IMG/VR virus record: IMGVR_UViG_3300030098_003146
Span: 1-21,666 of that record
Length of the DNA: 21,666 nt
Strand: one strand, 5' to 3'
Source: a virus
The notes beneath the pieces were generated by a model, which saw only the letters and a program-made list of their open reading frames with translations, did no database searches and was not told where the DNA came from. Positions 6,035 through 21,666 of the stretch are shown piece after piece. Numbering within the stretch: the first letter of the stretch is position 1; the number at the start of each line of letters is the position of its first letter. The translations under genes were made by a program, and so were the position numbers.

Positions 6035-6228
6035 AATAATTTATCTAGTTTTTCATTTATTTCTTTAACTTGAATTTCTATTACGCTTAATCGTGAATCA
6101 ATACGCAACATGTCTAGATCTTTTATCTTAGACTCTAATGCTGTTACACGGTTCGCGAGCATACCATAAGTGCTAGCTATACCTGCAGCTATAACGATAA
6201 CCCAAATCCAATCTCTTGTTGACAACAT
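6028..6228 (-). CDS. Small membrane protein with coiled coil, possible lysis or virion accessory protein
   Basis: This is a 66-residue protein. Residues 7-24 (WIWVIVIAAGIASTYGML) form one membrane-spanning helix. Residues 26-66 have hydrophobic residues at heptad-like spacing between charged ones (ALESKIKDLDML, IEIQVKEINEKLDKLL), consistent with a coiled coil. The short N-terminus followed by one helix and a long charged helix fits either a small holin/spanin-like lysis protein or a membrane-bound accessory to the ejection proteins. No lipobox or endolysin gene is nearby to support lysis. It is the last gene of the minus-strand operon; its ATG shares a base with the stop of the gene before it (TAATG). 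Confidence 0.6.
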   Translation of the reverse strand: MLSTRDWIWVIVIAAGIASTYGMLANRVTALESKIKDLDMLRIDSRLSVIEIQVKEINEKLDKLLD

Positions 6229-7250: not shown

Positions 7251-10012
7251 TACGATTGTCCTCTCATGGCAATAGCTTTACCTAATGGATCATCATCTAG
7301 CAAGGCTAATCTTGAAGATTGATTTATGTTACCAACTGGATTACCAGCACCTGCTGGAACATTCGTAGCTACATTAATAGGTTGATCTGCAGTTTTTTGC
7401 TCTTCAATAATCGTTGATGCTGGGTTTACAGCTGCTGGTTGCTCTGCTTGATCAGTGCCTGAACCAAAAATAGTTGGTCTAATGACGCCTCTATTATCAT
7501 ACTTTTGATTTAAGAATTCATCTACAGCAGACATAGTGCCAAGATTATTTAAACTTTCTTGTGATTTTAAATAAAATTCAGATGCAGTCATATCGTTACC
7601 ATCTGTTCTTGCTTGTATAGCATTGAATTCGTTATCTAACTCGCCAGGTAGTTCAGGAAATTGTTTGTATAATGTTTCGATTGTTTCTAAAGCGTATCTT
7701 TCACTAATAGGCAATGCCGCTTCTACTGTGTTGTATCCAGTAATACCACCTTTACCTAAGAAAGGACCTTTAAATGTTGGCATTTTTAATGGGTTTAACG
7801 CTGCTTTTGCACTAGCATTCATTGCTTTCGTTGCACTATCAAGTGCCATTGGTGATGCTAAAAGATAACCAAGTTTCCTTGCTATCAATATTCCAAGTAG
7901 TGTTAAACCTATTCCTGGAGTTATAGCACCAGCAAAGCTTGCTCCTGCTATTGGTAGTATTGCAGTTGTAAATGCTTTTGATCCACCTAACATTGTTCTT
8001 CTTGCAAGATACTGTGACACGTTTAAGTTTTTACCATTAAAAAAAACTTCTGCCGCATTTGCAAAAGCAAGTAATTTATTAGAGTCAGGTAATTTAATTT
8101 TTTTACCGGCTATCGACAGAGCCTCTGATAACGCTGTGCCTCTTGTTTCTAGAGATTTACCTATTTCATCTAAACCCAATATTCTTTTAAATTTTGTTGC
8201 GTTAAAAGTTAAATTATCAAAATTTTCAAAAGCTTTTATATCAAAATCAAGAATTCCTGGCTTTTCACCTTTTGTAAAAGAAAAACTATCTTCAAATGCA
8301 CCAAGTAATTTTGCTTTAACACCTTTAGCAAACATCTCGTCACCCATTAATCTTCGCATTGCTTCAACTGCTTTTGGGCTTTTAAAATCTTGAAATACGA
8401 CATTAAACAAACGATCACTCTCGACATTACCTGGAGTTTTAATTAATGCTTGAAAAGCAAACTTGGAGTCTGCGCCTAAAGCTTTTGCAGATGGCGATGC
8501 AAATAAAGTTACCATATCCGTATAAGCTTGATCAGCTACATTCAACAATCTCATTATTTCATCACCATTATCAATATTCTTCGCATGTTTACCTAAAGCC
8601 TTTTCCATTTTTTTAGAAACTTCAAATAAAGCATCACGTAACTCAGGTATGTCACCTGCTCTAGGCTTAATACCATATTGATAAACTTGATCATTAACTA
8701 AAGATCTATTAACTTTCCAAGCAGCGCCTGTAGCCATATTTGTTTGCAGTGTTGCTAAATTTTGCAATGATTTATACATTTCACTTTGTAATATTGGTGA
8801 ATTAGGTGATCCCAATGTTAGCTCATCAATAAAAGCTTTTTGTTTTTTTGCTTCGTTAATAACATCAGAATAGTCAATCATTTGTTTATTGCCAATCGCA
8901 TTAAAAAAATTTGTATATTTTTTATTAACATTACCCACTATTGTTTTTGAAACACTATCTCGAACTTTTGACAAATCTATACCTAAACTAGCTAAATTGT
9001 AAGTTGGTCCGTCCATAAAAATATTTTTAGCAGCTTTGATAAATTGAGTTTGAGTTTCCTCAAAAGCTCTTTGTACACCAGCACCATAAATAGGCATTCT
9101 ACCTAGTGCGTTAGGTATAGCTCTTATTAATTTATATCTGGAAACATCAAATACTGATGGAGTAATACCTGTCAATCTTTGTATCTCTTTTGCTTCTTTA
9201 GTTTCTTTAGCACCGACACCAAGCACATATCTCCTACCTATTGGTCTTAACAAGTTTACTGCTGGTCTGAAAAAACCAAAACCTGCACCAAATGCTAAAT
9301 CTATCTTTGCTTCATGTTGTAAATATTCTTTAAATGTTTCAGTATCTGGTCTTGAAATACCTTGTTCATATCCAAGAAACTCACCTATTTCGTTATATGT
9401 TGGGGTATACAACATCTTTTTTTCATTAAGATTATCTAATAATTTTTCATATCCTACTAATCCTGAAAGGTAACCGAGTGTTCCACCGACGATAGATCCT
9501 GCTACAGCACCTGCTGGTCCTCCAAATAATCCCAACCTTGCTCCTAATTTAGCACCACCTAAAGTACCGCCAAGTGATCCTCCTAAACCTAATATTAATT
9601 TTAACGCAGGAAAAGGATTTACCATTTGCGTGTTATAATTATCTAGTTTAACATCATCGCCTTCAATTAATCTTGGATTTAATTCTCTGTCAGTGTAACC
9701 AGCTAGACCTTGAAAACTATCTATAGATTTAATTATTTCTGCTTGCGATAAACCATCAGCTATACCTTTTTTTGTAATTTCTGCTACACCTGCTCTAAAC
9801 TTATCTGGAGTCATTTTATGTTTTTTTGGATCATATCTTGTTGTTCCAGTTGCCTCTTCAGCTGCTTGTTTAAATCCTAGAAATGTGGGTAAGTCACTAC
9901 CAGGTGGTAGCATATTAGTGGGTAAGCCGTCTTGTGCTTGAGGTAATTTTTCACCTGTCTCGTTTAGACGATTTATTCTTATTTGTGCTAATTCTGCTAT
10001 TTGTAACATCAT
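7250..10012 (-). CDS. Large internal virion (DNA-ejection-type) protein with glycine-zipper membrane segments
   Basis: This 920-residue protein is the longest in the window. Two stretches look able to enter a membrane: residues 137-187, a dense glycine-zipper region (GGSLGGTLGGAKLGARLG, GGPAGAVAGSIVGGTLG), and 681-719 (AILPIAGASFAGAITPG, LTLLGILIA). The rest is largely helical. The C-terminus (NINQSSRLALLDDDPLGKAI) resembles, from memory, the closing motif of marine phage internal virion proteins. These features fit proteins ejected with the DNA to form a channel across the cell envelope, like P22 gp7/gp20/gp16 or T7 gp14-gp16. I find no transglycosylase motif. It starts ATGATG, overlapping the preceding gene by 4 bases. 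Confidence 0.7.
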   Translation of the reverse strand: MMLQIAELAQIRINRLNETGEKLPQAQDGLPTNMLPPGSDLPTFLGFKQAAEEATGTTRYDPKKHKMTPDKFRAGVAEITKKGIADGLSQAEIIKSIDSFQGLAGYTDRELNPRLIEGDDVKLDNYNTQMVNPFPALKLILGLGGSLGGTLGGAKLGARLGLFGGPAGAVAGSIVGGTLGYLSGLVGYEKLLDNLNEKKMLYTPTYNEIGEFLGYEQGISRPDTETFKEYLQHEAKIDLAFGAGFGFFRPAVNLLRPIGRRYVLGVGAKETKEAKEIQRLTGITPSVFDVSRYKLIRAIPNALGRMPIYGAGVQRAFEETQTQFIKAAKNIFMDGPTYNLASLGIDLSKVRDSVSKTIVGNVNKKYTNFFNAIGNKQMIDYSDVINEAKKQKAFIDELTLGSPNSPILQSEMYKSLQNLATLQTNMATGAAWKVNRSLVNDQVYQYGIKPRAGDIPELRDALFEVSKKMEKALGKHAKNIDNGDEIMRLLNVADQAYTDMVTLFASPSAKALGADSKFAFQALIKTPGNVESDRLFNVVFQDFKSPKAVEAMRRLMGDEMFAKGVKAKLLGAFEDSFSFTKGEKPGILDFDIKAFENFDNLTFNATKFKRILGLDEIGKSLETRGTALSEALSIAGKKIKLPDSNKLLAFANAAEVFFNGKNLNVSQYLARRTMLGGSKAFTTAILPIAGASFAGAITPGIGLTLLGILIARKLGYLLASPMALDSATKAMNASAKAALNPLKMPTFKGPFLGKGGITGYNTVEAALPISERYALETIETLYKQFPELPGELDNEFNAIQARTDGNDMTASEFYLKSQESLNNLGTMSAVDEFLNQKYDNRGVIRPTIFGSGTDQAEQPAAVNPASTIIEEQKTADQPINVATNVPAGAGNPVGNINQSSRLALLDDDPLGKAIAMRGQS

Positions 10013-12066
10013 CTTAAATTATATTGCTCCGTAAAACCTTCACCAAATTTTTCATCAAGATAATCAAGAGTGTTTTGATTAGTATTGATGCCATTTTGTA
10101 TTGTTCCAAATGCAGCACCTTCTTGCACTCCACCATATTCACCACCTACAACAGTTATTTTTCCATCTTTACCAATGACTACTGTTTTTTTAAATTTTTC
10201 AAAATCATCGGCATTATGAAAAGGTCTTATGGTTGCATTGTAGTTGTTAACATAAAAATTTACTAATCCTTCTAACCTATTCATTGTTTTTCGATGGTTG
10301 TTGTTCAATCCACCTAATTGCACAACTTTTCTTGACTCTGCGATAACGTCTTTTAAAAGTCTGTTTGATCCTTGAAGATATCTTGCAAAAGCAAACGTAC
10401 TTTGTGCTTCTAAAATATTTATTAAATCTAAATTTTTATCAAGAATATTTTGTTTTACATCCGTGTAATAACTTGTAACATTTGATAAAGCCTCTTGCTT
10501 GTCTCCAGCTGTCATTTCTGATGCATTTATTGTTTGAACAATATTTTTGAATGATCCATCAATATCATTAACTATGGCTTGTTCATTTATATTATAACCT
10601 AATTGATTAACAGTGGTTATTTGTTTTTGTAATGTAGACATGTTTTCATTTATTTTTGATGAGTCAAAATCGCTAAATCCTAAAAGATTTTGTATCTCAC
10701 CAGTATAATCTGAAAGAATACCTCTTAAAGTTTTCATAAACATGTTCGCTTCATAAACTGAACCAAAAACTGCTTTGTCATGCATTTCATTTAATCTACC
10801 AATGTCATGAGCTGTCAAAACTGCGTTAAGACCTTGTTCTAAAAATTTAGTTTCTTCTTCTTTTTGTGCTATGGCTTTATCGTCACCACCTAATATCCCA
10901 CTACTTTGCGGTTGATCTGTGGCCATACCAGGAGCAGTTATCGTAAACATGTTCTTGCCAACTAAATTTTCAGGAACAGGAACGCCTCCAATGGTACTTG
11001 GATATTTTAAATTAGAATAAAATTCAATTTCAGCTGGCACTGAAGAATTTTTAAAAAAATCTAATTGACCTGTAATAGCACCTTCGTCATTATAATCTAC
11101 CAATTGGACTGCCGTTAAATTACCTGTAGGTTCATACATTCTTTTTGCTCTATCATCCTCTTCTTTTACTAAACTAAATGCTGTTAATCCTAATTCTTTT
11201 AGGTCTTGTTTTTTCTTTGCAGCTTCTTGAAAATAAAAATTAGCTGTGGGCGCTAATGCTTGTGCAAACAAATCAAAAACTTGTGGTAATGGTTTTTTCT
11301 TTGTAGTTCTTGCATTTAAAACATCTATACCAAACTTTATAAATAATAAGTTTGGATCTACGCCTTCTTTAAAACCTATTGTATCTTTTAATTCATCAAT
11401 TAATGTTTGTGTCCTTGCCTTCTTTTCTTCAGGTGTCATGCCACCTTCCATTTTTTTTAAATTATTAAATCCAACATTAGCAGCATTCATAGCTGCATTA
11501 TTAAATGTAGACGATGCAATATTTGCAACAGAGGCATCTGTAAGGTTTTGACTTATCTCATTACCAGTAAACCTAGAATTAAATTCAGCTTCAGAAATAG
11601 TTGTTCCTGTTTTATTTATTTCTTCATCATAAAATGCTTTTTGTACATCATCATTAAGATTGTATAAAACTTCATTTGTATCAGCTTTTGCTGTGCCAGT
11701 ATCAGGAGCAAAATCTGTATAAGTAGAAAGATTTGAATTTACTTTTGTTGTATCAGTTTCTTTTATTGATTCTTGTGTGTTGTCATAACTAGTGTCATTT
11801 GTTACTGCACCAGTATTATTAGCATCAAACAAAGTACCTTGCTGTATAGATATTTGAGCTCTTACTTCTTTTTCTAATTCACCTGCGCCTGTTAGATTAG
11901 CTAAATCTGTAGTCAATCTTGAATAAGCTTGCTTAAGTTGACCTAAATCCATGGTTTGATAATTGTCTCTAATATTTATTAGATCAGTCATCAAAACAGG
12001 ACTGTTTAAAAATGCTGCATTATCATCAGCAAAATCATATAAACTTGAATTAGGATTTACTTCCAT
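10009..12066 (-). CDS. Probable internal virion protein, hydrophilic and helical
   Basis: This is a 685-residue protein without a recognised domain. The first ~90 residues look helical (LGQLKQAYSRLTTDLANL), followed by a threonine/asparagine/aspartate-rich linker (about 90-170) and a long mostly helical body. The segment PQVFDLFAQALAPTANFYFQEAAKKKQDL looks like a helix pair seen in marine phage virion proteins. No membrane segment, signal peptide or catalytic motif is visible. It overlaps the gene before it by 17 bases and the next by 4. Its place between two virion-type proteins suggests it is packaged in the head or forms part of the ejection machinery; this is inferred from context, not from motifs. 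Confidence 0.6.
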   Translation of the reverse strand: MEVNPNSSLYDFADDNAAFLNSPVLMTDLINIRDNYQTMDLGQLKQAYSRLTTDLANLTGAGELEKEVRAQISIQQGTLFDANNTGAVTNDTSYDNTQESIKETDTTKVNSNLSTYTDFAPDTGTAKADTNEVLYNLNDDVQKAFYDEEINKTGTTISEAEFNSRFTGNEISQNLTDASVANIASSTFNNAAMNAANVGFNNLKKMEGGMTPEEKKARTQTLIDELKDTIGFKEGVDPNLLFIKFGIDVLNARTTKKKPLPQVFDLFAQALAPTANFYFQEAAKKKQDLKELGLTAFSLVKEEDDRAKRMYEPTGNLTAVQLVDYNDEGAITGQLDFFKNSSVPAEIEFYSNLKYPSTIGGVPVPENLVGKNMFTITAPGMATDQPQSSGILGGDDKAIAQKEEETKFLEQGLNAVLTAHDIGRLNEMHDKAVFGSVYEANMFMKTLRGILSDYTGEIQNLLGFSDFDSSKINENMSTLQKQITTVNQLGYNINEQAIVNDIDGSFKNIVQTINASEMTAGDKQEALSNVTSYYTDVKQNILDKNLDLINILEAQSTFAFARYLQGSNRLLKDVIAESRKVVQLGGLNNNHRKTMNRLEGLVNFYVNNYNATIRPFHNADDFEKFKKTVVIGKDGKITVVGGEYGGVQEGAAFGTIQNGINTNQNTLDYLDEKFGEGFTEQYNLR

Positions 12067-13084
12067 GTTGCAACGCCATTATTCCTTTCTCTATCATTCC
12101 CATGTCACCACCATCTTTAACTAATCCAGGAATCCCCAAAGCCGCAGATCCAAAACCTAAAGCAGTTTGTATAGGTGAAGTTTCACTACCAAATTGTTGT
12201 CTTATTTGTGTACCTTGATCTGAGGGTAAACCACTAATAACGTCTGACAAAAATCCAAACAAAGATAAAGGTCTATCTGTAGCTTCCATAATATTTTGTC
12301 TTTCAATTTCAGCAGCTTTTTCAGCCTCAGATTGTTCTAATTTACCTGCGCCAAGCAAAGCTGAAATGTCTGATAATCCTAATTTATTTGCTAAACTTAC
12401 TAAACCACCACCAACTTGACCCGCTGCAAGCAATGATTTAGCTTGGTCTACTTGTGCTTTTGAGTCTGCAGATGTGAAATATGGAGCTAATTGAGCACCT
12501 CTAAGTTTTTCACTTTCTTCTTGACCAAAAGTGCCAAGCGCTGCTTTTAATGCTCTATCGAAAGTATCAGCACGTGTTTTACCAATAGCAGATAGTCTTG
12601 CCTCCTCAACCAATGCTTTTGAGACAGCTTCTCGATCTCCACCAAAAGCTCCTACCTTTGTTGCAGCATCGTCAATTTTTTTTCCAGAAAGTGCTGCCTG
12701 CTTATTTATTTCATCTATTACAAATTTTTCATATTGATTAATGAAAGGGTCAACGGCTTTTGATGGATCAAATCTTGTCTTTATAGCATCATCTACTAAC
12801 TCTTGACCTCTTGTTGTAAAATCTGGTTTAGCTTCCCCCGCAACAGCTGTGCCTTTTTCTATAGCATCAAGAGCTGCTGTTAAATTAGGATCAAATCTGC
12901 CTATGCCTTTTTTTAATTGTTCTATCGCATCTTTTTGTGTTTCAGATAACCCAACAATTTGTCTTTCTGGCAATCCTACATTTGCTTGTTTTACAATAAA
13001 ATCTTCTATTGCAGCAATTAAATCAGCTTGAGCTTTTTCTATAAAAGGTGGTTTTCTATACGTTACTACTTGTTCTGTTGACAT
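12050..13084 (-). CDS. Conserved phage virion-type protein with GAFGG motif
   Basis: This 344-residue protein carries DPFINQY (112-118), a run of charged helix and then GAFGGDRE (145-152), followed by a long alanine-rich helix. The order 'DPyi-x-y ... GAFGGsR ... helix' is a signature I recall from a family frequent in marine podovirus contigs beside head-tail or internal virion genes; its function is not established. The C-terminal end (GGDMGMIEKGIMALQHG) is glycine/methionine-rich, as is usual in that family. The start shares a base with the stop of the first operon gene (TAATG). A role as a minor virion or DNA-ejection protein is likely from family and context. Confidence 0.65.
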   Translation of the reverse strand: MSTEQVVTYRKPPFIEKAQADLIAAIEDFIVKQANVGLPERQIVGLSETQKDAIEQLKKGIGRFDPNLTAALDAIEKGTAVAGEAKPDFTTRGQELVDDAIKTRFDPSKAVDPFINQYEKFVIDEINKQAALSGKKIDDAATKVGAFGGDREAVSKALVEEARLSAIGKTRADTFDRALKAALGTFGQEESEKLRGAQLAPYFTSADSKAQVDQAKSLLAAGQVGGGLVSLANKLGLSDISALLGAGKLEQSEAEKAAEIERQNIMEATDRPLSLFGFLSDVISGLPSDQGTQIRQQFGSETSPIQTALGFGSAALGIPGLVKDGGDMGMIEKGIMALQHGSKS

Positions 13085-14886
13085 TATATTTGACTCGCTA
13101 TTTGATTTGCTTGGTCTAGATCTCTTACCATTTTACCTAAACCTGATTTTAAGAATGCTGTATTAAACTCTTCAGGATCTTTTACAACTCCTTTAGGATC
13201 AAATCCAACCCCTTGTTTATTCATTAATCTCTCTAAAATAGTGGGTGAACGTCCTGGACCTAAAATTTCTGGATCTTGAAAATCATCGTATGTGGACATG
13301 TTTGCACCGCCGCCAAAAAAACTACCTTTAAAATTTTTAGGATACTCAAGTCTTGATAGGCTACTACCTCTATGTGGTACAGACGTTTGCGTTCCGTCTT
13401 GCATACCCATTTTTTTTAAACCATTAATTTCTTCAGTTCCCATGCCATCTTGTGCTAAAGCCATTGGTGGTCTTTGTTTTGGCATACCCATGTTTAATTT
13501 AGACATGATTGCCATAATTTCTTCTATAGATTTACCTTGTGCCATCATTTTCTTAATTATTTCTTGTAAATTCATACCTGGTCCAGCCATTGCTGTTTGT
13601 CTACCATCTTGCGCTTGGTCATATCTTTGTAAAGGTAAGTTTCCCCTTTTTTTCATTTCTTCATTAAATATTTCAATCAATTCTTCTGGAGATTTTCTAT
13701 CTAAACCTATTAATTTAGTCACTCTATCAGTGTCTTTGCCTTCTTTTGCCATTACAGGATTGTAATTCATGCTACCATCTTCTGCACCTTGAAAGTCATA
13801 ACCCATTTGTTTTGCCATTGGTTTGGTCTCAGCTCTTAAATTATCCATCATCTGTTGACCTTTTTCTGTATCTCCTCCACCTAATGCAAATAAGGTATAC
13901 TCAGGTATTACGTGTTCATTATTACTAACTAATATCTCTTGTGTTTGTCCAGTGTTAGGATCTACTATTTCACCTTCTAAAAGGTCTTCTCTACCTGCGC
14001 CCATGCCAACTAATCTACCTCCAATAGGATTTACTCTGTCTCCACCAATTTGACCTCCCATCATACTAGGCTCCATTAAATCACCAATACCACCACCGGT
14101 AGCAAAATTACCTTTACCACCTCTGCCAGGAATAATTGTATCTCTTGATGGTTTTCCCTTTTTAATTGATTCCTCTATCAATCTTTTAAGATATGCTTCG
14201 TATTCTTGTTGCCCTTCCATTTGAGCTATTCTATTTGATGATTCAATAATTTCTTCTGTTGTTGGCATTCTACTTAGTTCTGTTGGAGTCATACCCATAA
14301 CAGTACCTTTTCCATCATCAAACTTCATTGTATTACCACCGCTGTTTAACAATCCTACACTTCTTAAAAACTCGTAAATGTCTCCAGGATTGTTACCAAT
14401 TCTATCAGCTTGTTGTGCGTCCTCTAAAAATTTATCTGATACACCTGAAGTGATTAATTTGTTATCTGCAGGGTTGTATGTAAAATCCTCTATTAAATTA
14501 CTTGGAGCTTGATCAGTGTCAAAAGCTCCTAAACCATAAAGAAATGCACTGCCACCAAGAACTCCTGGTAAATTTCTTAAAGGATTGTTTTCACCTAAAC
14601 TTTCAAATATGGCTGCTTGTTTAAATCTCTCACCAGCAGCTTTTCTAATAGCTTCATCTGTAATTACATCCTTTAAAGTGTTTTTACCAAAAGTTTGACC
14701 TCCAAAATATCCACCAATACCTCCGGCTAATGCTTCTCTACCCCCTTTGCCCGCGAGCAACGGTACACCGGCACCAATCAATGTTGAGTATAACGGACCT
14801 AAACCAAAGGCTGAAGCTGCTACTCCTGCGAAAGGGCTTAAATCAGACGCTACATCTTTAATTTTTTTAAAAAACTTACCTAGCAT
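13084..14886 (-). CDS. Large glycine/methionine-rich virion-type protein, first gene of the minus operon
   Basis: This is a 600-residue protein. The N-terminus is a basic amphipathic segment (LGKFFKKIK) followed by hydrophobic glycine-rich sequence (residues 18-66), which could associate with membrane. Residues 298-352 (GREDLLEGEIVD, then ILVSNNEHVIPEYTLFALGGGDTEKG) match in layout the 'S-x-GEfVip-x-v..lG.G....G' module I recall from marine phage structural proteins. A methionine- and glutamine-rich stretch follows (about 430-490). The ATG is preceded by AGGAG (plus-strand 14890-14894) at good spacing. It leads the operon downstream of the promoter at 14961-14989. Its composition and operon suggest an internal virion or tail-associated protein; no enzyme motif is visible. 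Confidence 0.65.
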   Translation of the reverse strand: MLGKFFKKIKDVASDLSPFAGVAASAFGLGPLYSTLIGAGVPLLAGKGGREALAGGIGGYFGGQTFGKNTLKDVITDEAIRKAAGERFKQAAIFESLGENNPLRNLPGVLGGSAFLYGLGAFDTDQAPSNLIEDFTYNPADNKLITSGVSDKFLEDAQQADRIGNNPGDIYEFLRSVGLLNSGGNTMKFDDGKGTVMGMTPTELSRMPTTEEIIESSNRIAQMEGQQEYEAYLKRLIEESIKKGKPSRDTIIPGRGGKGNFATGGGIGDLMEPSMMGGQIGGDRVNPIGGRLVGMGAGREDLLEGEIVDPNTGQTQEILVSNNEHVIPEYTLFALGGGDTEKGQQMMDNLRAETKPMAKQMGYDFQGAEDGSMNYNPVMAKEGKDTDRVTKLIGLDRKSPEELIEIFNEEMKKRGNLPLQRYDQAQDGRQTAMAGPGMNLQEIIKKMMAQGKSIEEIMAIMSKLNMGMPKQRPPMALAQDGMGTEEINGLKKMGMQDGTQTSVPHRGSSLSRLEYPKNFKGSFFGGGANMSTYDDFQDPEILGPGRSPTILERLMNKQGVGFDPKGVVKDPEEFNTAFLKSGLGKMVRDLDQANQIASQI

Positions 14887-15011: not shown

Positions 15012-15692
15012 ATGCAAAAAGAAATAAAATTAAAATTTGACGCTATACGTCCGTTTGGACCCACGGTAGTCAAAGGTAAGGTGCCTAATTTTATACTCGA
15101 TGTAGTAAATAAAAAGTGTGATGAGATACTAGGTGACCCTAAATTAGCTAAACAATGGGATTGGTCTCCTAACTTAGCAGGTAATGTAAAACAAGAAGTT
15201 CGTTTAGCACCAGAATGGATAGATGGCGATGGTCAACAATTAGTTTTTTTAATTGGTGAAATGGTCAAATCATATTTGTCCATACCACCAGCGAGCGAAA
15301 CACTGGCACCAGAAAAAATAGATAAGATGGTTATTGAATCTATGTGGGCCGTGAGTCAATGGGCTGGAGACTTTAATCCTGCACATATGCATGATGGTGA
15401 TTTATCAGGAGTATTTTATACAAAGATGCCAAATAGCATTGATAAAGAAAGAGCAGCTGAAGATCATTATCCAAGTGTTGGTGATATACTTTTTATGTGT
15501 GGTGATCCTAAAACATTTAGTGGACACAAACTACAACACCCACCAGAGGTCGGCGATATATTTTTATTTCCATCTTGGTTGACACATATGGTGTATCCTT
15601 TCAGAACACCAAATGAAGAAAGAAGATCCGTATCATTTAATTTAAGATTAATACCAAAAGGCGCTGACATTCAACCTGTGGTGCAAAAATGA
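15012..15692 (+). CDS. Fe(II)/2-oxoglutarate oxygenase, TIGR02466-like (2OG-FeII_Oxy_5)
   Basis: This is a 226-residue putative dioxygenase that would hydroxylate an unknown substrate using 2-oxoglutarate, O2 and Fe(II). The core is MWAVSQWAGDFNPAH (111-125) running into MHDGDLSGVFYTKMP (126-140). The characteristic LSGVFY strand follows the histidines that should bind iron (H125, H127, with D128 near). The second half has LFPSWLTHMVYPF (185-197, distal ligand H192) and ERRSVSFNLRL (203-213), whose arginine would bind 2-oxoglutarate. I chose the ATG at 15012 because GGAGG (14999-15003) lies 8 bases before it; the ATG at 14997 has no such site. It is the first gene of the cassette and its stop overlaps the next start (ATGA). 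Confidence 0.82.
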   Translation: MQKEIKLKFDAIRPFGPTVVKGKVPNFILDVVNKKCDEILGDPKLAKQWDWSPNLAGNVKQEVRLAPEWIDGDGQQLVFLIGEMVKSYLSIPPASETLAPEKIDKMVIESMWAVSQWAGDFNPAHMHDGDLSGVFYTKMPNSIDKERAAEDHYPSVGDILFMCGDPKTFSGHKLQHPPEVGDIFLFPSWLTHMVYPFRTPNEERRSVSFNLRLIPKGADIQPVVQK

Positions 15693-16252
15693 TGGAATAC
15701 TCTGACACGATTATAGATAAAAAATTTGCTTTTGAATTAGCTAATTATTACAAGCAAAAAGTTTTGTGGAGTGCAAACAATTCCGCTAGTGCATCTTATC
15801 CTTATAATGATAACCCTTCATATATTTTGTTTGGCACTAAACATTTTTTACGAAAAAATATTGACGTAATAGAGTATGGACCTGACATGAATTGGAACAT
15901 AACATTGATAGATCTTTGGAATCATCTTAAAACATCGTTTGGTAAACATCACCTTTTTTTACACACTATCTATGCTAACTTACAATTTAAAGGTATGGAC
16001 GGAAAACTTCACAGAGATGATTATGGTAAGGGTGAGGGCACATCATTTATAATTATGTTATCCCCAAATAATGACGTAGAAAATATTGGTGGTGAGTTTT
16101 ATAATGACACACTTAAAAAAAATGTAGATTTTAAACATGGTAGAGTAGTTATGTTAGATTCAACTGATTTACATTTAGGCAAAGCATTTAATGTTCCACA
16201 TAAAATGAGAATATCTTTAAGGTTATCAGGTTTTGACACATTAATTTGGTAA
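15689..16252 (+). CDS. Fe(II)/2-oxoglutarate oxygenase, prolyl-4-hydroxylase-like
   Basis: This is a 187-residue putative hydroxylase with the double-stranded beta-helix motif set of P4H-type enzymes: HRD at 108-110 (iron ligands H108 and D110), GGEFYND (134-140) in the central strand, DLHLGKAF (160-167) with distal ligand H162, and MRISLRLSGF (173-182) with R174 to hold the 2-oxoglutarate carboxylate. All three metal ligands and the arginine are present, so it should be active. It is a different sub-family from the gene before it, which lacks the GGEF strand motif. It starts ATGATG, overlapping the previous stop by 4 bases. The substrate is unknown. Confidence 0.85.
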   Translation: MMEYSDTIIDKKFAFELANYYKQKVLWSANNSASASYPYNDNPSYILFGTKHFLRKNIDVIEYGPDMNWNITLIDLWNHLKTSFGKHHLFLHTIYANLQFKGMDGKLHRDDYGKGEGTSFIIMLSPNNDVENIGGEFYNDTLKKNVDFKHGRVVMLDSTDLHLGKAFNVPHKMRISLRLSGFDTLIW

Positions 16253-16254
16253 AA

Positions 16255-16773
16255 ATGATACAAGTTTTAGATAATGTTTTTGATGAAAAAGATATCGACA
16301 CTTTTTATGGTGAGTTTAGAGATTTTACTGCATGGAAATTTACTGGAGGTGTTGGAGTAAAAAATTGGAGAAAATTTGATTTAATTTTAAATAAAGAACA
16401 CCCCATTCAAGCTAAACTTTTTAAAAAATCAGATGAACTTTTTAAAAAAACGTGCCCTTCTTTAGTGTCTACACATTCGCTACAGTATCATTATGCAAGT
16501 GGATATTTGTTTGGAACTCATCATGAAATACATTCTGACTATGAAAAAGATTGGGGGATAACTGTAATGTTTTATTTAAATAAAGTGTGGGATTTATCCT
16601 ACGGAGGCGAAACAATTTTTATAAATAATTCAGGTGATATAACAAATTCAGTTATACCTAAACCAGGTAGAGTTGTTATTTTTGATGGAAATATACCTCA
16701 TGCAGCTAGAGAGGTAAGTAGAACTTGTATTGAGTTAAGAATGGTAGCTACATTTAAATATGGACTTAAATAA
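16255..16773 (+). CDS. Fe(II)/2-oxoglutarate oxygenase, prolyl-4-hydroxylase-like
   Basis: This 172-residue protein has HSD (93-95, ligands H93 and D95), then GITVMFYLNKVW (101-112) and YGGETIF (116-122), then PKPGRVVIFDGNIPHAARE (135-153) with distal ligand H149. A downstream arginine (R156 or R162) is available for 2-oxoglutarate. This is the standard layout of small phage P4H-fold hydroxylases. I take the ATG at 16255, two bases after the previous stop; a TTG at 16246 would add three residues inside the previous gene. It shares the general fold but little obvious sequence with the preceding enzyme, so the two probably act on different targets or arose by old duplication. Confidence 0.85.
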   Translation: MIQVLDNVFDEKDIDTFYGEFRDFTAWKFTGGVGVKNWRKFDLILNKEHPIQAKLFKKSDELFKKTCPSLVSTHSLQYHYASGYLFGTHHEIHSDYEKDWGITVMFYLNKVWDLSYGGETIFINNSGDITNSVIPKPGRVVIFDGNIPHAAREVSRTCIELRMVATFKYGLK

Positions 16774-17332
16774 AATACCCGTAAATCTGTATGCAGAAAC
16801 ACAGATGGACTTAAAGGATAAATACATATCCCAATTATTAGCAACCATAGAGTTGATTAGAAGAGGTAATATAGATGGAGAAAAATTTTCAAATCATTCT
16901 TTTGGTTGGCAAAGCTCAGGCCTACCCCAAAGCGGAACGTTTTTACCGTTCATTCAAAAATTAAATGATAAGTGTATTGAATTTTGTAATAGCATTGAAA
17001 ATTTCAAATTTACTGATCTTACTATAAAAAAATTTTGGGCTAATATTAATTATGAAAATGATATCAATTGGCCTCATAAACATCAAGATGATTTGTCTGG
17101 CGTGTTTTATTTACAAGTACCAGAAAATTCAGGTGATTTAGTTTTACAAAACCTTAATTATGACATTAATAACAAAATATCTTTTCACCTTCAAAATAGT
17201 TCCATCATAGTTATAAAACCAATTAAAAATAAACTTATATTATTTGATTCAAATTGTACTCACCTTGTAACAAAAAATAATTCTAAACAGCCAAGAATAA
17301 GCATTAGTTTTAATATTTCGATCAATGACTAA
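16760..17332 (+). CDS. Fe(II)/2-oxoglutarate oxygenase, TIGR02466-like (2OG-FeII_Oxy_5)
   Basis: This 190-residue putative hydroxylase belongs to the same sub-family as the first gene of the cassette. It has FGWQSSGLP (48-56, the family's 'GWqS' element), FWANINYENDINWPHKHQDD (92-111) running into LSGVFYLQVP (112-121) with ligands among H106, H108 and D110, and LFDSNCTHLVTKN (161-173) with H168 before QPRISISFNI (177-186), where R179 should bind 2-oxoglutarate. It lacks the N-terminal extension of the first gene. It overlaps the previous gene by 14 bases and the next by 8, so the block is translated as a coupled unit. The substrate is unknown. Confidence 0.84.
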   Translation: MDLNKIPVNLYAETQMDLKDKYISQLLATIELIRRGNIDGEKFSNHSFGWQSSGLPQSGTFLPFIQKLNDKCIEFCNSIENFKFTDLTIKKFWANINYENDINWPHKHQDDLSGVFYLQVPENSGDLVLQNLNYDINNKISFHLQNSSIIVIKPIKNKLILFDSNCTHLVTKNNSKQPRISISFNISIND

Positions 17333-17594
17333 ATTATTTCCAATGGTTAGAATTACATGGCTTGATGCAAAAGACATGGAAACAGGTTGGTTACACATAA
17401 AAGAAATTTTAAATGCGCCTTTGGCCGTGTGTCAAGAAGTTGGATACATGGTAGTAAATAATGACGATAAGATTGTAATTATGAGGTCATGGTGTGTAGA
17501 CAAGGACGACAACCACGGTGGTGGTGCGATAGCCATACCAAGAGGGTGGGTTAGAAAAATAGAATATTTAAAGGTAGAGTATGCAACACAATAA
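17325..17594 (+). CDS. Small conserved phage protein of unknown function
   Basis: This 89-residue protein has VRITWLDAKD near the start, then EVGYMVVNNDDKIVIMRSW, a GGG turn, and IAIPRGWVRKIEYL at the end. This 'W-x-DA ... vGy-v ... IP-x-gwv-x-i-x-L' pattern is a small beta-rich family I remember from many marine phage contigs; its role is not known to me. No cysteine cluster, signal peptide or enzyme motif is visible. An in-frame ATG at 17343 gives a shorter form beginning MVRITW and is equally plausible. It overlaps genes on both sides, placing it between the oxygenases and the glycosyltransferase, so it may be a partner or substrate-binding subunit of that cassette; that is inference. Confidence 0.65.
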   Translation: MTKLFPMVRITWLDAKDMETGWLHIKEILNAPLAVCQEVGYMVVNNDDKIVIMRSWCVDKDDNHGGGAIAIPRGWVRKIEYLKVEYATQ

Positions 17595-18357
17595 AATTTT
17601 TATAGGGACTCCGTGTTATGGAGGCATGATTACAGCAGATTATTTTAAAAGTTGTATGCAATTAGTAGCCTTAGCTGCATCAAAAAAGATAGAATTACAA
17701 TTTGGAACTATTGGAAATGAGTCATTAATAACTAGAGCAAGAAATACTTTAGTTCAATTATTTATGGATGGTGATTACACGCATTTATTGTTTATTGATT
17801 CTGATTTAGCTTTTAATCCAGAAGCAGTAATAAAAATGCTTGATTATGACAAAGATGTTGTAACAGGAATATATCCTAGAAAAACTATTGATTGGATAAA
17901 AGTAAAAAAAAGAATCAAAGAAAAGCCAGATATTTCTGAAGATGAATTACTTGCAGCTTCATTACAATATAATTTAAATGTAAGAGACCCAAATAATATA
18001 CTCTTAGAAAAAGGTTTCATAGAGGTCATGGATGGTCCTACTGGCTTTATGTTAATTAAAAGAGAAGTTTTTGTAAGAATGGCAGAGGCATATCCAGAGT
18101 TAAAGTTTGTGCCTGATCAACATATTAATCAATCTCATGACAAAGAATTTGAATATCACAAAACATCTGATTGGAATTACACTTTTTTTGACACCATGAT
18201 TGAACCAGAGACTAAAAGATATTTATCAGAAGACTATGCTTTTTGTCGTTTGTGGCAAAAAATGGGCGGTAAAATATATGCAGATATCTTGAGCGGTATG
18301 ACACATTATGGTAATTATGCATTTAAAGGCAATGTATCTACACAATTTAAAAAATGA
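17581..18357 (+). CDS. GT-A-fold glycosyltransferase-like protein
   Basis: This is a 258-residue protein predicted to transfer a sugar from a nucleotide-sugar donor. The N-terminus KIFIGTPCYGG (5-15) is the first nucleotide-binding strand; SLITRARNTLVQLF (48-61) and HLLFIDSDLAF (68-78) follow. The last contains the DSD (73-75) metal-binding motif of GT-A enzymes. Downstream are MDGPTGFMLIKREVF (150-164), SEDYAFCRLW (216-225), a candidate acceptor/base element, and H242 near the C-terminus. It resembles the family 2-like transferases of marine phages. It overlaps genes on both sides (14 and 4 bases), within a run of 2OG oxygenases, which suggests that hydroxylation and glycosylation are linked. 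Donor and acceptor are unknown. Confidence 0.8.
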   Translation: MQHNKIFIGTPCYGGMITADYFKSCMQLVALAASKKIELQFGTIGNESLITRARNTLVQLFMDGDYTHLLFIDSDLAFNPEAVIKMLDYDKDVVTGIYPRKTIDWIKVKKRIKEKPDISEDELLAASLQYNLNVRDPNNILLEKGFIEVMDGPTGFMLIKREVFVRMAEAYPELKFVPDQHINQSHDKEFEYHKTSDWNYTFFDTMIEPETKRYLSEDYAFCRLWQKMGGKIYADILSGMTHYGNYAFKGNVSTQFKK

Positions 18358-18926
18358 GTTTTGTTAAAGTTGTAGATAACGTGGCCTCTAAACCAATATT
18401 TGATTTAGCCAGTAAGCATTTTCAAAAATCTATTTGGGGTTTAAACAACTATTCAAGTGTACACGACACAAACTCAGGTTTAGGTGCAACCGATTATAAT
18501 AATGAAGTTAATAAATTATTATCGGAAAATAGATTTAATGAGTCGAACATTCTTTATAATCTTTGGTTAGAAATTAATAAAAAATTAGAAATGGAGAAAA
18601 ACTACAAAAATGAATTATGGAGAATACATTTGAATCTTGGGCTTCCTTTGACAGATCAAACAATTCATAAAGATAGTGAGTCAGCTTTTTCAAAAGATAT
18701 GACAATAGTTTATTTTTTAAACGAATCTTGGCAAGAAAATTACGGAGGAGAATTAGTGGTATTTGATACTTCAAGAACTATGATAACCGCAGGGTCTTTT
18801 CCAGTGCCAAATAGAGCTTGTTTATTTGAATCCTATCTACCTCACAGAGGAGTTACCATAAGTAGAATATGTCCAATAGCACGAATATCTATAGCTTTTC
18901 AGTGTAAGTACAATAATACACTTTAG
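18354..18926 (+). CDS. Fe(II)/2-oxoglutarate oxygenase, prolyl-4-hydroxylase-like
   Basis: This is a 190-residue putative hydroxylase. The motifs are IHKDSES (104-110, ligands H105 and D107), MTIVYFLNESW (116-126), YGGELVVFD (130-138), FESYLPHRGV (158-167, distal ligand H164) and ARISIAFQ (176-183, R177 for 2-oxoglutarate), so the site looks complete. The N-terminal ~85 residues look mostly helical. It starts at an ATGA overlap with the glycosyltransferase stop, showing the two are translated together. It ends the cassette: 30 bases later the tail-nozzle gene begins. The substrate is unknown; its direct coupling to the transferase makes it the best candidate for the hydroxylase that prepares the sugar acceptor, which is inference. 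Confidence 0.85.
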   Translation: MSFVKVVDNVASKPIFDLASKHFQKSIWGLNNYSSVHDTNSGLGATDYNNEVNKLLSENRFNESNILYNLWLEINKKLEMEKNYKNELWRIHLNLGLPLTDQTIHKDSESAFSKDMTIVYFLNESWQENYGGELVVFDTSRTMITAGSFPVPNRACLFESYLPHRGVTISRICPIARISIAFQCKYNNTL

Positions 18927-18956: not shown

Positions 18957-20813
18957 ATGCAATTAGTTGATTTAAAGTTTCGTCCTGGCATAGACAAGCA
19001 AGACACAGCTTATTCTGCAGGAGATGAGCGTAAGTATATAGATTCTGATTTTGTTAGATTTCACTATGGCAAACCTGAAAGATGGGGTGGATGGACAAAT
19101 CTTCCAAACCCAAATGTAACAGTGGTCGGAGTTGTAAGAGATACTCATTCTTGGATTGGTCTAGATGGGACAAGATATTTGGGGTTAGGCACAGATAGAA
19201 AACTATATATTTTCTCTGAAGGAAAAGTTTATGACATTACACCCATAAGAGTTACAGACAGTTTAACAAATCCTTTTGCAACCTCAAGTGGTTCAGCTAC
19301 TGTAACTGTAACTGATGCTTCTCATGGCGCTGAAGTAGGGGCGTTTGTTACCTTTGACAACGGTTCTGCTACAAATGTAGTTGATGGTATTGATTTTAAT
19401 AATGAATTTGAAATCTTAACAGTTCCAAGCTCTAATACTTATACAATAAATACGGGTACAAATGCATCAGGCACCACAGCTGCAGGAGGTGGATCAGTTG
19501 ATGCTTCTTATCAAATAAACCCTGGACCAACATCCTCTACATACGGATATGGTTGGGGCACTGAAACATGGAGTGCAAGCACTTGGGATACACCTAGATC
19601 TTCATCTAATGTTGTAGTAGCAGGTAGAAACTGGTCTTTAGATAATTTTGGAGAAGACTTAATAGCAACTGTATTAGATGGTGGAACGTTTATATGGGAT
19701 ACATCTGGAGGCTTAGCTGCAAGAGCAACAGCTTTATCAAATGCTCCGACAGCATCTAGATTTAGCATTGTTTCTACGGATACAAGACATTTGTTGATAT
19801 TTGGAACTGAAACTACTATTGGTAATACAGCCACACAAGATGATTTATTATTTAGATTTTCAGATAGAGAAGATGCAACAGACTATACGCCTGTTGCCAC
19901 AAATGAAGCAGGATCTTTAAGAATAACAGATGGATCTAGAATTGTTGGTGCAGTTAAATCAACAGGTCAAATACTTGTATGGACAGATACATCATTACAC
20001 GGTATTCAATTTGTCGGCACACCTTTTACATTTGGTCTTAGACAACTTGGTGCTAACGCAGGGTTAATAGCACAGCACGCAGCCATAGAAGTAAATGGAG
20101 TTGCTTATTGGATGTCAGACAATGCATTTTATCTTTTTGATGGAGTTGTTAAAAAAATGCCCTGTTCAGTACAAGATTATGTATTTGATGATTTAAGTTA
20201 CACAAATAAAAATGACATTGCTGTTGGTTTAAATACAGCGTTTAATGAAATAATTTGGTATTATCCTTCAGCTAATGCTACACAAATAGATAGAGCTGTT
20301 GCTTATAACTATTTAGAAGGAACTTGGTATACAATAAATCTTGCGAGAACTACTTGGTTAGGTGCTTATGTGTATGAAAAACCAATAGCAACAGAGTATA
20401 ATGCGTCTGCAACAGCAAACGCCACAAACATACTAGGTTTAACTGCTGGTGCTTCTTCAATATTTGAACACGAGTCTGGTAATAATCAAGCAGATGGCAC
20501 AGCTATTACAGCGTTTTTAGAAACTGGGTCTGTAGAGATAGCGGATGGAGATCAACTTATGTCGGTTAGTAAATTAGTTCCTGATTTTGATAATCTTGCA
20601 AACACTATGACAGCTAGACTAACTTTAGAACAATATCCTCAATCAGCATCAAATGTGCAAACGAGTGGGTCGATTACTAGCACAACAGAAAAAATTAGTG
20701 TTAGAGGTAGAGGAAGAGCAGTCAAAATACGGTATTCAACTAATACAGTAGATGATACACCTTGGAGACTTGGTTCACAAAAATTAGAAATAAGACCAGA
20801 CGGTAGAAGATAA
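18957..20813 (+). CDS. P22 gp10-like tail nozzle / packaged-DNA stabilisation protein
   Basis: This 618-residue protein would form part of the podovirus tail tube below the portal adaptor and help retain packaged DNA. I recognise the marine podovirus form of the P22 gp10 family from the opening VDLKFRPGIDKQ, DSDFVRFHYGKPERWGGW (30-47), the middle VAYWMSDNAFYLFDG, EIIWYYPSA and VAYNYLEGTWY elements, and the end TPWRLGSQKLEIRPDGRR. A serine/threonine/glycine-rich insert (about 100-180) may be an extra beta domain. It is longer than P22 gp10 (472). It follows the 2OG-glycosyltransferase cassette after 30 bases and shares one base with the next start (TAATG). Nozzle proteins face the outside, so it is one possible target of the cassette. 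Confidence 0.85.
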   Translation: MQLVDLKFRPGIDKQDTAYSAGDERKYIDSDFVRFHYGKPERWGGWTNLPNPNVTVVGVVRDTHSWIGLDGTRYLGLGTDRKLYIFSEGKVYDITPIRVTDSLTNPFATSSGSATVTVTDASHGAEVGAFVTFDNGSATNVVDGIDFNNEFEILTVPSSNTYTINTGTNASGTTAAGGGSVDASYQINPGPTSSTYGYGWGTETWSASTWDTPRSSSNVVVAGRNWSLDNFGEDLIATVLDGGTFIWDTSGGLAARATALSNAPTASRFSIVSTDTRHLLIFGTETTIGNTATQDDLLFRFSDREDATDYTPVATNEAGSLRITDGSRIVGAVKSTGQILVWTDTSLHGIQFVGTPFTFGLRQLGANAGLIAQHAAIEVNGVAYWMSDNAFYLFDGVVKKMPCSVQDYVFDDLSYTNKNDIAVGLNTAFNEIIWYYPSANATQIDRAVAYNYLEGTWYTINLARTTWLGAYVYEKPIATEYNASATANATNILGLTAGASSIFEHESGNNQADGTAITAFLETGSVEIADGDQLMSVSKLVPDFDNLANTMTARLTLEQYPQSASNVQTSGSITSTTEKISVRGRGRAVKIRYSTNTVDDTPWRLGSQKLEIRPDGRR

Positions 20814-20980
20814 TGGCTAAAATAAATATAACTAGATTACCAAATGCTACAGAGGAGTATGATGCTAGTCAGTTTGATCAAATGATTAGATTATTAGAAC
20901 AAATAGTTTTCTTACTTAATACAAACTTTCAACAAGATATAAGAGAAGAAACAGAGTCGGAGACATTTTTCCTTGGCTAA
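20813..20980 (+). CDS. Small tail-associated protein, unknown function
   Basis: This is a 55-residue protein starting MAKINITRLP and ending FFLG, with a likely amphipathic helix in the middle (QFDQMIRLLEQIVFLLNTNF). Its ATG uses the last base of the nozzle stop (TAATG), and it overlaps the next gene by 8 bases, so it is very likely real. Short proteins of this type directly after the gp10-like gene are usual in marine podovirus genomes, as I recall. A structural or assembly role is inferred from position. Confidence 0.6.
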   Translation: MAKINITRLPNATEEYDASQFDQMIRLLEQIVFLLNTNFQQDIREETESETFFLG

Positions 20981-21335
20981 TACATTTAAAAGCGCAATGG
21001 TTGATCTTACAAATACAGATCTAACAACAATATTAACAGTACCTACAGCTAATCCTGGTGCATCACCACCCGTGCCTCCTACAACTGATGTAGTGAAATC
21101 TATTTTAGTTTGTAATGATTCAGGAAATACAACACTTGTAGATTTAGAAGTGTTAAGATCATCCTCAACATTTGAATTATTTAAAGCAAAAAGTGTGGCA
21201 ACTAATACTACAACAGAATTACTATCTCAGCCTCTTGTACTACAAGAATCAGATGTATTAAAAGCACAGGCAAATGCTGCTAATCAAGTTCATATAATTG
21301 TAAGTTTTATGGAGGTTACAAAAGGTCAACTTTAG
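20973..21335 (+). CDS. Small conserved structural-type phage protein
   Basis: This is a 120-residue protein starting with TTG (MANTFKSAMVDL). I keep the TTG because GGAG (20959-20962) lies 10 bases upstream and the 'MANTFK' opening is usual for this family; the ATG at 20997 would drop eight residues. The rest is a beta-rich domain: TTILTVP, VVKSILVCNDSGNTTLVDLEVL, ELLSQPLVLQESDVLKAQ and VHIIVSFMEV. The spacing of strands and the 'L-x-x-sD-x-l' turn fit small virion beta-sandwich proteins found beside tail genes in marine phages. The exact position in the particle is unknown. Confidence 0.65.
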   Translation: MANTFKSAMVDLTNTDLTTILTVPTANPGASPPVPPTTDVVKSILVCNDSGNTTLVDLEVLRSSSTFELFKAKSVATNTTTELLSQPLVLQESDVLKAQANAANQVHIIVSFMEVTKGQL

Positions 21336-21346
21336 AAACGAATACT

Positions 21347-21666
21347 ATGAATTTACAATCATTATTTATTACACCAGTCATGATGACAGAGGTTATGGGC
21401 CACGGTCATTTAGTGGAAAGACTATACGAAATAAAAGCTAAAGATGAGAAAGGCATGCCTAGATCCAATATAGGAGGTTGGCATAGCCATGATGAGCTTT
21501 ACAAGGATATAGAATTTAAAAGTACAGTAGGTGATATATTATTAAAAGCTAAAGAGTGCTTTGACCATTTAGACGTGCAAGATAAATATGTTCCAGAAAT
21601 GACAGGTTTGTGGGGCATGATTAATCCTCCAGGATCTAGAAATAATGTCCACACACATCCTTACAA
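21347..21666 (+). CDS. Fe(II)/2-oxoglutarate oxygenase, TIGR02466-like (3' end missing)
   Basis: The frame runs from the ATG at 21347 to the window edge: 106 residues and part of a codon. The N-terminus MNLQSLFITPVM is the family's usual 'LF-tPv' opening, NIGGWHSHDEL (about 42-52) matches its 'GGWqS' element, and GLWGMINPPGSRNNVHTHPY (about 87-106) brings the iron-binding H-x-H region just before the cut. The distal histidine and arginine lie beyond the window. This is the fifth 2OG oxygenase in under 7 kb. It stands 11 bases after the structural-type gene, without a strong ribosome binding site, so it probably continues the same operon. Confidence 0.75.
   Translation, partial: MNLQSLFITPVMMTEVMGHGHLVERLYEIKAKDEKGMPRSNIGGWHSHDELYKDIEFKSTVGDILLKAKECFDHLDVQDKYVPEMTGLWGMINPPGSRNNVHTHPY

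What the first reader, a model, noticed from the sequence alone, without database searches (positions are those of the whole stretch)
15012..18926. Cassette of four 2OG oxygenases coupled to a glycosyltransferase
Four 2OG hydroxylases, a small unknown and a GT-A transferase lie in overlapping or nearly touching frames beside tail genes. One hydroxylase start overlaps the transferase stop. This looks like a modification pathway in which hydroxyl groups are installed and one is then glycosylated. Targets could be virion proteins, host surface molecules or DNA. I know of 2OG genes in marine phages, but this packed combination is the best candidate for an undescribed system here.
Basis: partly seen in the sequence, partly recalled or inferred. 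Interest (0 to 1): 0.7.

Follow-up and report, generated by a model that had tools for sequence, protein, structure and literature searches.

The report
Swappable oxygenase island beside phage tail genes
A marine phage, probably infecting SAR11 bacteria, carries at least nine small oxygen-inserting enzymes and one sugar-transferase gene in fixed slots among its tail genes, and close relatives swap the enzymes in those slots while keeping the frame; what the enzymes modify is not known.

Summary
The interval holds five 2OG-Fe(II) oxygenase genes (not four), a small conserved ORF and a GT-A glycosyltransferase, nearly all in overlapping frames. It is the left half of a larger island. A sequence 99.9% identical to the window runs past its end and carries nine 2OG genes between ejection and tail-fibre genes, plus a tryptophan halogenase further on. 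In 85 non-redundant relatives the frame is fixed (OG1–SM–GT–GP10–sm4–SM2–OG6–c9), but the sockets between are hypervariable: 43 contigs show 32 different socket contents, with 5–12 2OG genes per full island and 49 2OG families at 50% identity. Other swappable genes encode halogenases, a carbamoyltransferase and putative methyltransferases. All 2OG families tested with more than one close pair are under purifying selection. So the genes are maintained as enzymes and exchanged whole. Clustered 2OG genes in HTVC023P-type pelagiphages are already published. The socket architecture and its scale I did not find described. Most likely use: tailoring side chains of virion tail proteins, about 40% confidence.

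The parts
13084..14886 (-). Left flank: ejection/internal virion protein (EJ), first of a minus-strand block
   Evidence: neighbour 12050-13084 matches phrog_4287 DNA ejection protein; this position is filled by different protein types in relatives
15012..15692 (+). OG1, 2OG-Fe(II) oxygenase; constant member of the frame (alternative start 14997)
   Evidence: PF13759 3e-17; phrog_81; median 90% id among close relatives; dN/dS 0.06; family motif HxH rather than HxD
15689..16252 (+). OG2, divergent 2OG oxygenase in socket S1 (variable)
   Evidence: No Pfam hit; hhalign 95% to OG3/OG5; H108, H162, R174 invariant; same family in only L023 and L082 besides the window's own phage
16255..16773 (+). 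OG3, 2OG oxygenase in socket S1 (variable); ORF can also open at TTG 16246
   Evidence: PF13640 3e-11; below-cut-off similarity to NCBIfam FlmC-family 2OG model, 2.5e-25; invariant H96-x-D98...H152...R159/R165
16760..17332 (+). OG4, 2OG oxygenase in socket S1 (variable)
   Evidence: PF13759 1e-16; weak match to solved TIGR02466-like structures 2rg4/3bvc
17325..17594 (+). SM, small conserved protein of unknown function; frame member in most relatives
   Evidence: phrog_25889 4e-9; 87% mean column identity; dN/dS 0.09; AlphaFold model unusable, pLDDT 43
17581..18357 (+). GT, GT-A fold glycosyltransferase; constant frame member
   Evidence: phrog_1574 1e-43; AlphaFold pLDDT 89, pTM 0.88; invariant D73-x-D75, E217-D218, H242; PDB matches; dN/dS 0.06
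18354..18926 (+). OG5, 2OG oxygenase in socket S3 between GT and GP10 (variable; socket empty in 26 of 81 relatives)
   Evidence: PF13640 7e-9; socket census
18957..20813 (+). GP10, packaged-DNA stabilisation / head-tail virion protein; constant frame member
   Evidence: phrog_3287 virion structural protein 2e-78; relatives annotated stabilization protein; dN/dS 0.04
20813..20980 (+). sm4, 55-aa constant protein; longer in DSL-LC04
   Evidence: Cluster 4, 78 loci
20973..21335 (+). SM2, 120-aa constant protein
   Evidence: phrog_1276 9e-7; cluster 7, 65 loci
21347..21666 (+). OG6, sixth 2OG oxygenase, cut by the window end; constant frame member
   Evidence: phrog_81 6e-9 for the fragment; full gene in the identical contig L213:2209-2799, PF13759 3e-24

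Best explanation
This is the left half of a modular modification island of an HTVC023P-like podovirus. A constant frame (OG1, SM, GT, GP10, sm4, SM2, OG6, c9) is kept, its tested members under strong purifying selection. Between its genes are sockets that are emptied, filled or refilled with different intact oxygenases and other group-adding enzymes. I infer that exchange happens by homologous recombination in the conserved frame genes. I infer that the enzymes act late in infection on side chains of virion proteins made from the same region (tail collar fibre, tail proteins, GP10, ejection proteins): each 2OG oxidises, typically hydroxylates, a particular residue; the GT may add a sugar to one constant site; halogenase, carbamoyltransferase and methyltransferase-like genes serve as alternative decorations. 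Swapping enzymes would change the chemistry of the adsorption apparatus without changing its sequence. Shown: gene content, fixed frame, hypervariable sockets, purifying selection, GT-A fold. Inferred: the recombination route, the virion as substrate, the reactions, and the advantage in host recognition.
For: Fixed frame with variable sockets in 85 relatives: 43 contigs spanning S1-S3 give 32 distinct contents; of 15 contig pairs with GP10 97-99% identical, 14 differ in content. 417 2OG genes in 49 families at 50% identity; 5-12 2OG per full island. The island lies between ejection genes and a tail-fibre cluster with a PF07484 collar protein, with GP10 inside it. Cultured relatives HTVC023P and HTVC027P, and the uncultured phage 023Pt_psg01, have 2OG genes at the same structural gene. 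Variable 2OG families: median dN/dS 0.105 over 458 close pairs, none above 1; OG1 0.058, GT 0.061, OG6 0.069, GP10 0.039. 2OG genes in the 50.6-kb relative occur only in the island. Two distinct Trp-halogenase-type proteins (8e-91, 8e-34) and a carbamoyltransferase (1e-44) are swapped in as well.
Against: No direct evidence for any substrate. 2OG content does not co-vary robustly with tail-fibre sequence: an early signal for the collar protein disappeared in a larger set, and only one of 17 genes (TFmid, partial p 0.03) remained. A carbamoyltransferase and several GT-like genes would equally suit glycan or small-molecule targets. No collagen-like G-X-Y array was found in the tail proteins examined. 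The contigs are metagenome assemblies, mostly from a few studies.
Confidence: 0.4

Rival explanations
1. The enzymes remodel host envelope molecules (LPS, polysaccharide, lipids) during infection, for superinfection exclusion or receptor masking; oxygenases and the GT act on glycans or their precursors.
For: GT with closest VIA matches that include Mnn9 and an archaeal-virus protein; swappable carbamoyltransferase; in cyanophage ACG-2014f the GT homologue is near another GT2 and a nucleotide-sugar epimerase.
Against: No nucleotide-sugar synthesis genes were seen in the island; its position is bound to virion genes.
Confidence: 0.25
2. The enzymes modify host or defence proteins inside the cell (counter-defence or takeover); hypervariability reflects an arms race with intracellular defence rather than receptor recognition.
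For: Combinatorial content among near-identical phages; 2OG enzymes commonly act on proteins (established knowledge of the superfamily).
Against: PADLOC gave only generic 2OG models; the genes lie in the structural region, away from the replication genes.
Confidence: 0.15
3. The 2OG genes tune 2-oxoglutarate or nitrogen metabolism of the host, as proposed for cyanophages.
For: Proposed for T4-like cyanophages with many 2OG genes (PMC3037559).
Against: Bulk 2OG turnover would not need 49 diverging families in fixed slots.
Confidence: 0.06
4. DNA (or nucleotide) hypermodification: 2OG enzymes hydroxylate bases and the GT glycosylates them.
For: GT homologues in T4-like phages sit beside or near the sliding clamp and recombination genes; HTVC023P-type phages carry other DNA hypermodification genes (PMC9599517).
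Against: No TET/JBP-type or T4 DNA-glucosyltransferase family match for any of the seven proteins; a DNA pathway would not need 5-12 swappable oxygenases.
Confidence: 0.08

Closest known systems
2OG-Fe(II) oxygenase clusters of HTVC023P-type pelagiphages (PMC9599517)
   Same: Same phage lineage; several non-orthologous 2OG genes near each other; same neighbouring virion gene, and a GT relative in HTVC023P and HTVC027P
   Different: Published as eight families, nearby but not adjacent, paired with 'ferrochelatases'; not described as a fixed frame with swappable sockets. Here up to 12 per phage, many in overlapping frames
Metaviromic islands of marine phages (PMC3909814) and the cyanophage hyperplastic region
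   Same: Hypervariable region by host-recognition/tail genes; Fe(II)-dependent oxygenases were listed among island genes with inferred role host recognition
   Different: Those islands were defined by read recruitment and their identifiable genes were mostly recognition proteins and terminases; here the variable cargo is enzymes and the order of the frame is known
Collagen lysyl hydroxylase/glycosyltransferase pathway (LH3, COLGALT1; mimivirus L230 and R699)
   Same: 2OG hydroxylase plus GT-A enzyme; GT model matches LH3, R699, COLGALT1 (Foldseek E from 4e-7 for the human proteins; VIA Z 15-17)
   Different: Separate genes; match to LH3's inactive accessory domain; 9-13% identity; STIV A197 and Mnn9 score similarly; no collagen-like substrate found
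2OG gene sets of T4-like cyanophages (PMC3037559)
   Same: Several 2OG genes per phage, variable between phages
   Different: Up to about five per genome in the published table; interpreted as nitrogen/2OG metabolism; not described as arranged around a GP10-GT frame

Membership tests
Fe(II)/2-oxoglutarate oxygenase superfamily (OG2, OG3, OG5) | H-x-D/E...H metal triad and downstream R/K | tested here: met
   Conserved H-x-D...H...R in alignment A7 for OG3/OG5; for OG2 H108, H162, R174 invariant with D110 in its own family and hhalign 95% to A7
Fe(II)/2-oxoglutarate oxygenase superfamily (OG1, OG4, OG6) | Canonical H-x-D/E triad | tested here: inconclusive
   PF13759 members above cut-off, but OG1 has H-x-H (HMH) where the motif is expected and OG4 has both HKH and HQD nearby; the ligand set of this subfamily was not resolved here
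Fe(II)/2-oxoglutarate oxygenase superfamily | 2OG-dependent oxidation | not testable with these tools
   Needs enzyme assay
GT-A glycosyltransferases | GT-A fold, DxD motif, xED and C-terminal His | tested here: met
   Model matches GT-A structures with Z 12-18; D73-x-D75, E217-D218, H242 invariant in 32 homologues
Hydroxylysine glycosyltransferases (LH3/COLGALT1 type) | Match to the catalytic GT domain with its metal and UDP residues | tested here: inconclusive
   Best LH3 alignment covers residues 293-536, the accessory domain, not GT domain 33-277
Hydroxylysine glycosyltransferases (LH3/COLGALT1 type) | Collagen-like Gly-X-Y acceptor encoded nearby | tested here: not met
   Only one G-X-Y-like run in 279 contigs, in a distant relative (L158)
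Metaviromic/hyperplastic island | Gene content differs between phages whose flanks are nearly identical | tested here: met
   32 contents in 43 contigs; 14 of 15 pairs at GP10 97-99% differ
Phage DNA hypermodification (TET/JBP plus base GT) | TET/JBP oxygenase or T4-type DNA glucosyltransferase domain | tested here: not met
   No such Pfam, NCBIfam or PHROG match for the cassette proteins

The most novel reading that the evidence does not exclude
A combinatorial chemical code on a virion: the phage population keeps a conserved tail gene set but diversifies its surface chemistry by exchanging whole side-chain-modifying enzymes (hydroxylases, halogenases, ureohydrolase-like, carbamoyl- and methyltransferases) in fixed slots, so that host range evolves by post-translational modification rather than by adhesin sequence.
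Probability: 0.25. Interest if true: 0.9.

Novelty: new variant of a known kind. Interest (0 to 1): 0.6.

Why it matters
Phages related to this one are widespread in the ocean (PMC9599517), and 2OG genes are reported as enriched in seasonal marine viruses without a known function (PMC11561400). A fixed frame with swappable, selected enzymes is a concrete, testable architecture. If the target is the virion, it would be an unrecognised way to diversify host recognition; if it is the host surface or defence, it would still explain a large set of orphan genes of pelagiphages. Cultured relatives exist, so virion proteomics could settle the target.

Tried and rejected
Co-variation of 2OG content with tail genes: signal for the collar protein at n=15 vanished at n=20; treated as no result. 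dN/dS over all pairs gave 0.17-0.75 in divergent 2OG families; rejected as saturation, repeated on pairs at least 80% identical. Structure of SM: pLDDT 43, not used. PDB sequence searches with the GT and with c23 found nothing. Peptide-arginase idea for swappable gene c34: only a sub-threshold Arginase hit (0.039) and no NCBIfam hit; kept as a lead only. Collagen-like acceptor sought and not found. Specific GT-2OG partnership: rejected as a general rule by GT homologues without 2OG. Chance clustering: rejected.
Full report
What was checked. The ORF list and translations confirm a run of plus-strand genes from 15012 to 18926 lying between a minus-strand block of internal virion genes and the GP10-like gene at 18957. 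Pfam identifies four of them as 2OG-Fe(II) oxygenases (OG1, OG3, OG4, OG5). A fifth, OG2 (15689-16252), has no Pfam hit, but a profile of it and its relatives aligns to OG3/OG5 with hhalign probability 95% and E 4e-8, and H108, H162 and R174 are invariant, with D110 in its own family. The interval therefore holds five oxygenases, one small conserved protein (SM, phrog_25889) and one glycosyltransferase (GT, phrog_1574). Gene gaps are -4, +2, -14, -8, -14, -4 and +30 bp.

What phage it is. The window is a 21.7-kb IMG/VR fragment, 34% GC. Its GP10 gene is closest to those of DSL-LC04, 023Pt_psg01 and the cultured Pelagibacter phages HTVC023P and HTVC027P. A SAR11 host is an inference from this kinship. 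HTVC023P, HTVC027P and 023Pt_psg01 have 2OG genes just upstream of the same gene, and HTVC023P and HTVC027P have GT relatives just downstream.

The object is larger than the finding. Two longer contigs differ from the window at 12 of 14,086 positions. In one of them (G002) the region continues: OG6, c9, a further 2OG, a small minus-strand gene, a 2OG, a DUF6065 protein, a 2OG, then on the minus strand c13, three tail-fibre-type genes including a PF07484 collar protein, and connector-type genes; a PF04820 tryptophan halogenase (2e-101) lies further on. That makes nine 2OG genes in one phage.

Fixed frame, variable sockets. I collected relatives by GT and by GP10, called ORFs and clustered the proteins. 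In 85 non-redundant contigs the order OG1 - SM - GT - GP10 - sm4 - SM2 - OG6 - c9 is kept (a few lack SM), and the spaces between hold different genes. For contigs covering the first three sockets (n=43) there are 32 different contents; socket S3 is empty in 26 of 81. Pairs with GP10 97-99% identical share content in 1 of 15 cases. The set holds 417 2OG genes in 28 coarse clusters and 49 families at 50% identity; contigs spanning the island carry 5-12 2OG genes. The minimal form is a 50.6-kb relative with only OG1 and OG6, and no 2OG elsewhere by Pfam search. Other genes found in sockets encode Trp-halogenase-type proteins, a carbamoyltransferase, putative methyltransferases, a GT9-like protein (my reading of c15, no family hit) and a weakly arginase-like protein (c34). 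The flanking ejection proteins are also replaced (median 34-35% identity for one of them), and the tail-fibre genes are more diverged (52-86%) than GP10 (94%).

Selection. On pairs at least 80% identical, dN/dS medians are 0.04 (GP10), 0.06 (OG1), 0.06 (GT), 0.07 (OG6), 0.09 (SM), and 0.105 over 458 pairs of variable 2OG genes, with no pair above 1. The variable genes are therefore working genes conserved in sequence but exchanged as units. Homologous recombination through the frame genes is the simple explanation; it was not tested.

The GT. The AlphaFold model is good (pLDDT 89, pTM 0.88). Foldseek's top 16 PDB matches are COLGALT1, LH3 and two entries titled only 'glycosyltransferase', at E about 4e-7 to 7e-6, ahead of the next group at 8e-5. 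COLGALT1 and LH3 are the human collagen hydroxylysine glycosyltransferases. VIA-align puts STIV A197 first (Z 18.2), then LH3 (17.2), mimivirus R699 (15.8), Mnn9 (15.5) and COLGALT1 (15.5). The LH3 alignment covers residues 293-536, the accessory domain, while only the domain 33-277 is active (PMC6082870). This is fold-level kinship: compatible with hydroxylysine-type glycosylation but no evidence for it. Mimivirus shows that a virus can encode such a pathway: L230 is reported to hydroxylate and glucosylate lysine, and R699 to glucosylate galactosylhydroxylysine (PMC9546862). GT homologues in Caulobacter, Sinorhizobium, Stenotrophomonas, Ochrobactrum and Rhizobium phages stand beside or near the sliding clamp gene with no 2OG. 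Counting neighbours within four genes: 105 of 107 GTs at >=60% identity have a 2OG, 5 of 13 at 48-60%, 17 of 47 below 48%. A second phage group again places GT between 2OG genes and GP10.

Function. The position (between ejection and tail-fibre genes, around GP10) and the enzyme types favour modification of virion proteins; this is inference. A test for co-variation of 2OG content with tail genes gave no robust signal. Host-surface, intracellular, metabolic and DNA targets remain as rivals.

What is known. PMC9599517 describes eight non-orthologous 2OG families in HTVC023P-type pelagiphages, near each other and often next to 'ferrochelatases'. PMC3909814 lists Fe(II)-dependent oxygenases in metaviromic islands. 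PMC11561400 reports enrichment of 2OG genes in seasonal viruses, role undetermined. PMC3037559 proposes 2OG/nitrogen modulation in cyanophages. I did not find the fixed-frame/socket description, but only open-licence papers were searchable. Hence 'new variant of a known kind'.

Limits. Contigs are metagenomic and could include chimaeras, although the same socket contents recur in contigs from different samples. Gene calling was simple and small genes may be missed. Fetched loci were the best 80 per search, so frequencies are not unbiased. Two-thirds of the family assignments in relatives rest on HMMs built here from the same data, seeded by Pfam-positive window proteins, plus motif inspection; cluster c23 is counted as 2OG on motif alone.

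Noticed in passing
L002:6302-6922, L123:9772-10362 and relatives (cluster c23): Proteins called 'ferrochelatase' in pelagiphages (phrog_2954, gp67 of HTVC023P) have no Pfam ferrochelatase match and an invariant H-x-D...H pattern like 2OG oxygenases. hhalign to 2OG profiles is weak (25%), so unproven, but the published 2OG-ferrochelatase pairing may rest on a misannotation.
   Followed up: partly
OG3, OG5 in the window; L126:1534-2034; URG13117 of 023Pt_psg01: phrog_274 is labelled 'DNA endonuclease V', but members seen here are 2OG oxygenases by Pfam or motif.
   Followed up: partly
L213:12623-14167 (-); L039:808-2259; L009:9903-11018: Tryptophan-halogenase-type proteins (PF04820), one in the window's own phage outside the island and two types inside sockets of relatives.
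   Followed up: partly
window 15012-15692 and 16760-17332: OG1 carries H-x-H where the superfamily has H-x-D/E (OG4 has HKH overlapping a HQD); 2rg4/3bvc show H-x-H at the aligned place. I did not establish the metal ligands of this subfamily.
   Followed up: partly
cluster c34, e.g. L122:645-1202: Small protein with an IDHHHD motif and sub-threshold arginase similarity, swapped into the island; possibly a peptide-arginase-like enzyme.
   Followed up: partly
L213:4451-5137 (cluster c12): DUF6065 protein (PF19541, phrog_7084) is a near-constant companion between a 2OG gene and the tail-fibre cluster in most full islands; function unknown.
   Followed up: no
window 6228-14886: Ejection-type genes left of the island are replaced by very different proteins in near relatives (median about 34% identity for the 12050-13084 gene), so this is a second variable module.
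   Followed up: no
L128, L129, L131, L132, L134: GT homologue beside or near the sliding clamp in T4-like phages of several bacteria, often near peptide deformylase; role unknown.
   Followed up: partly
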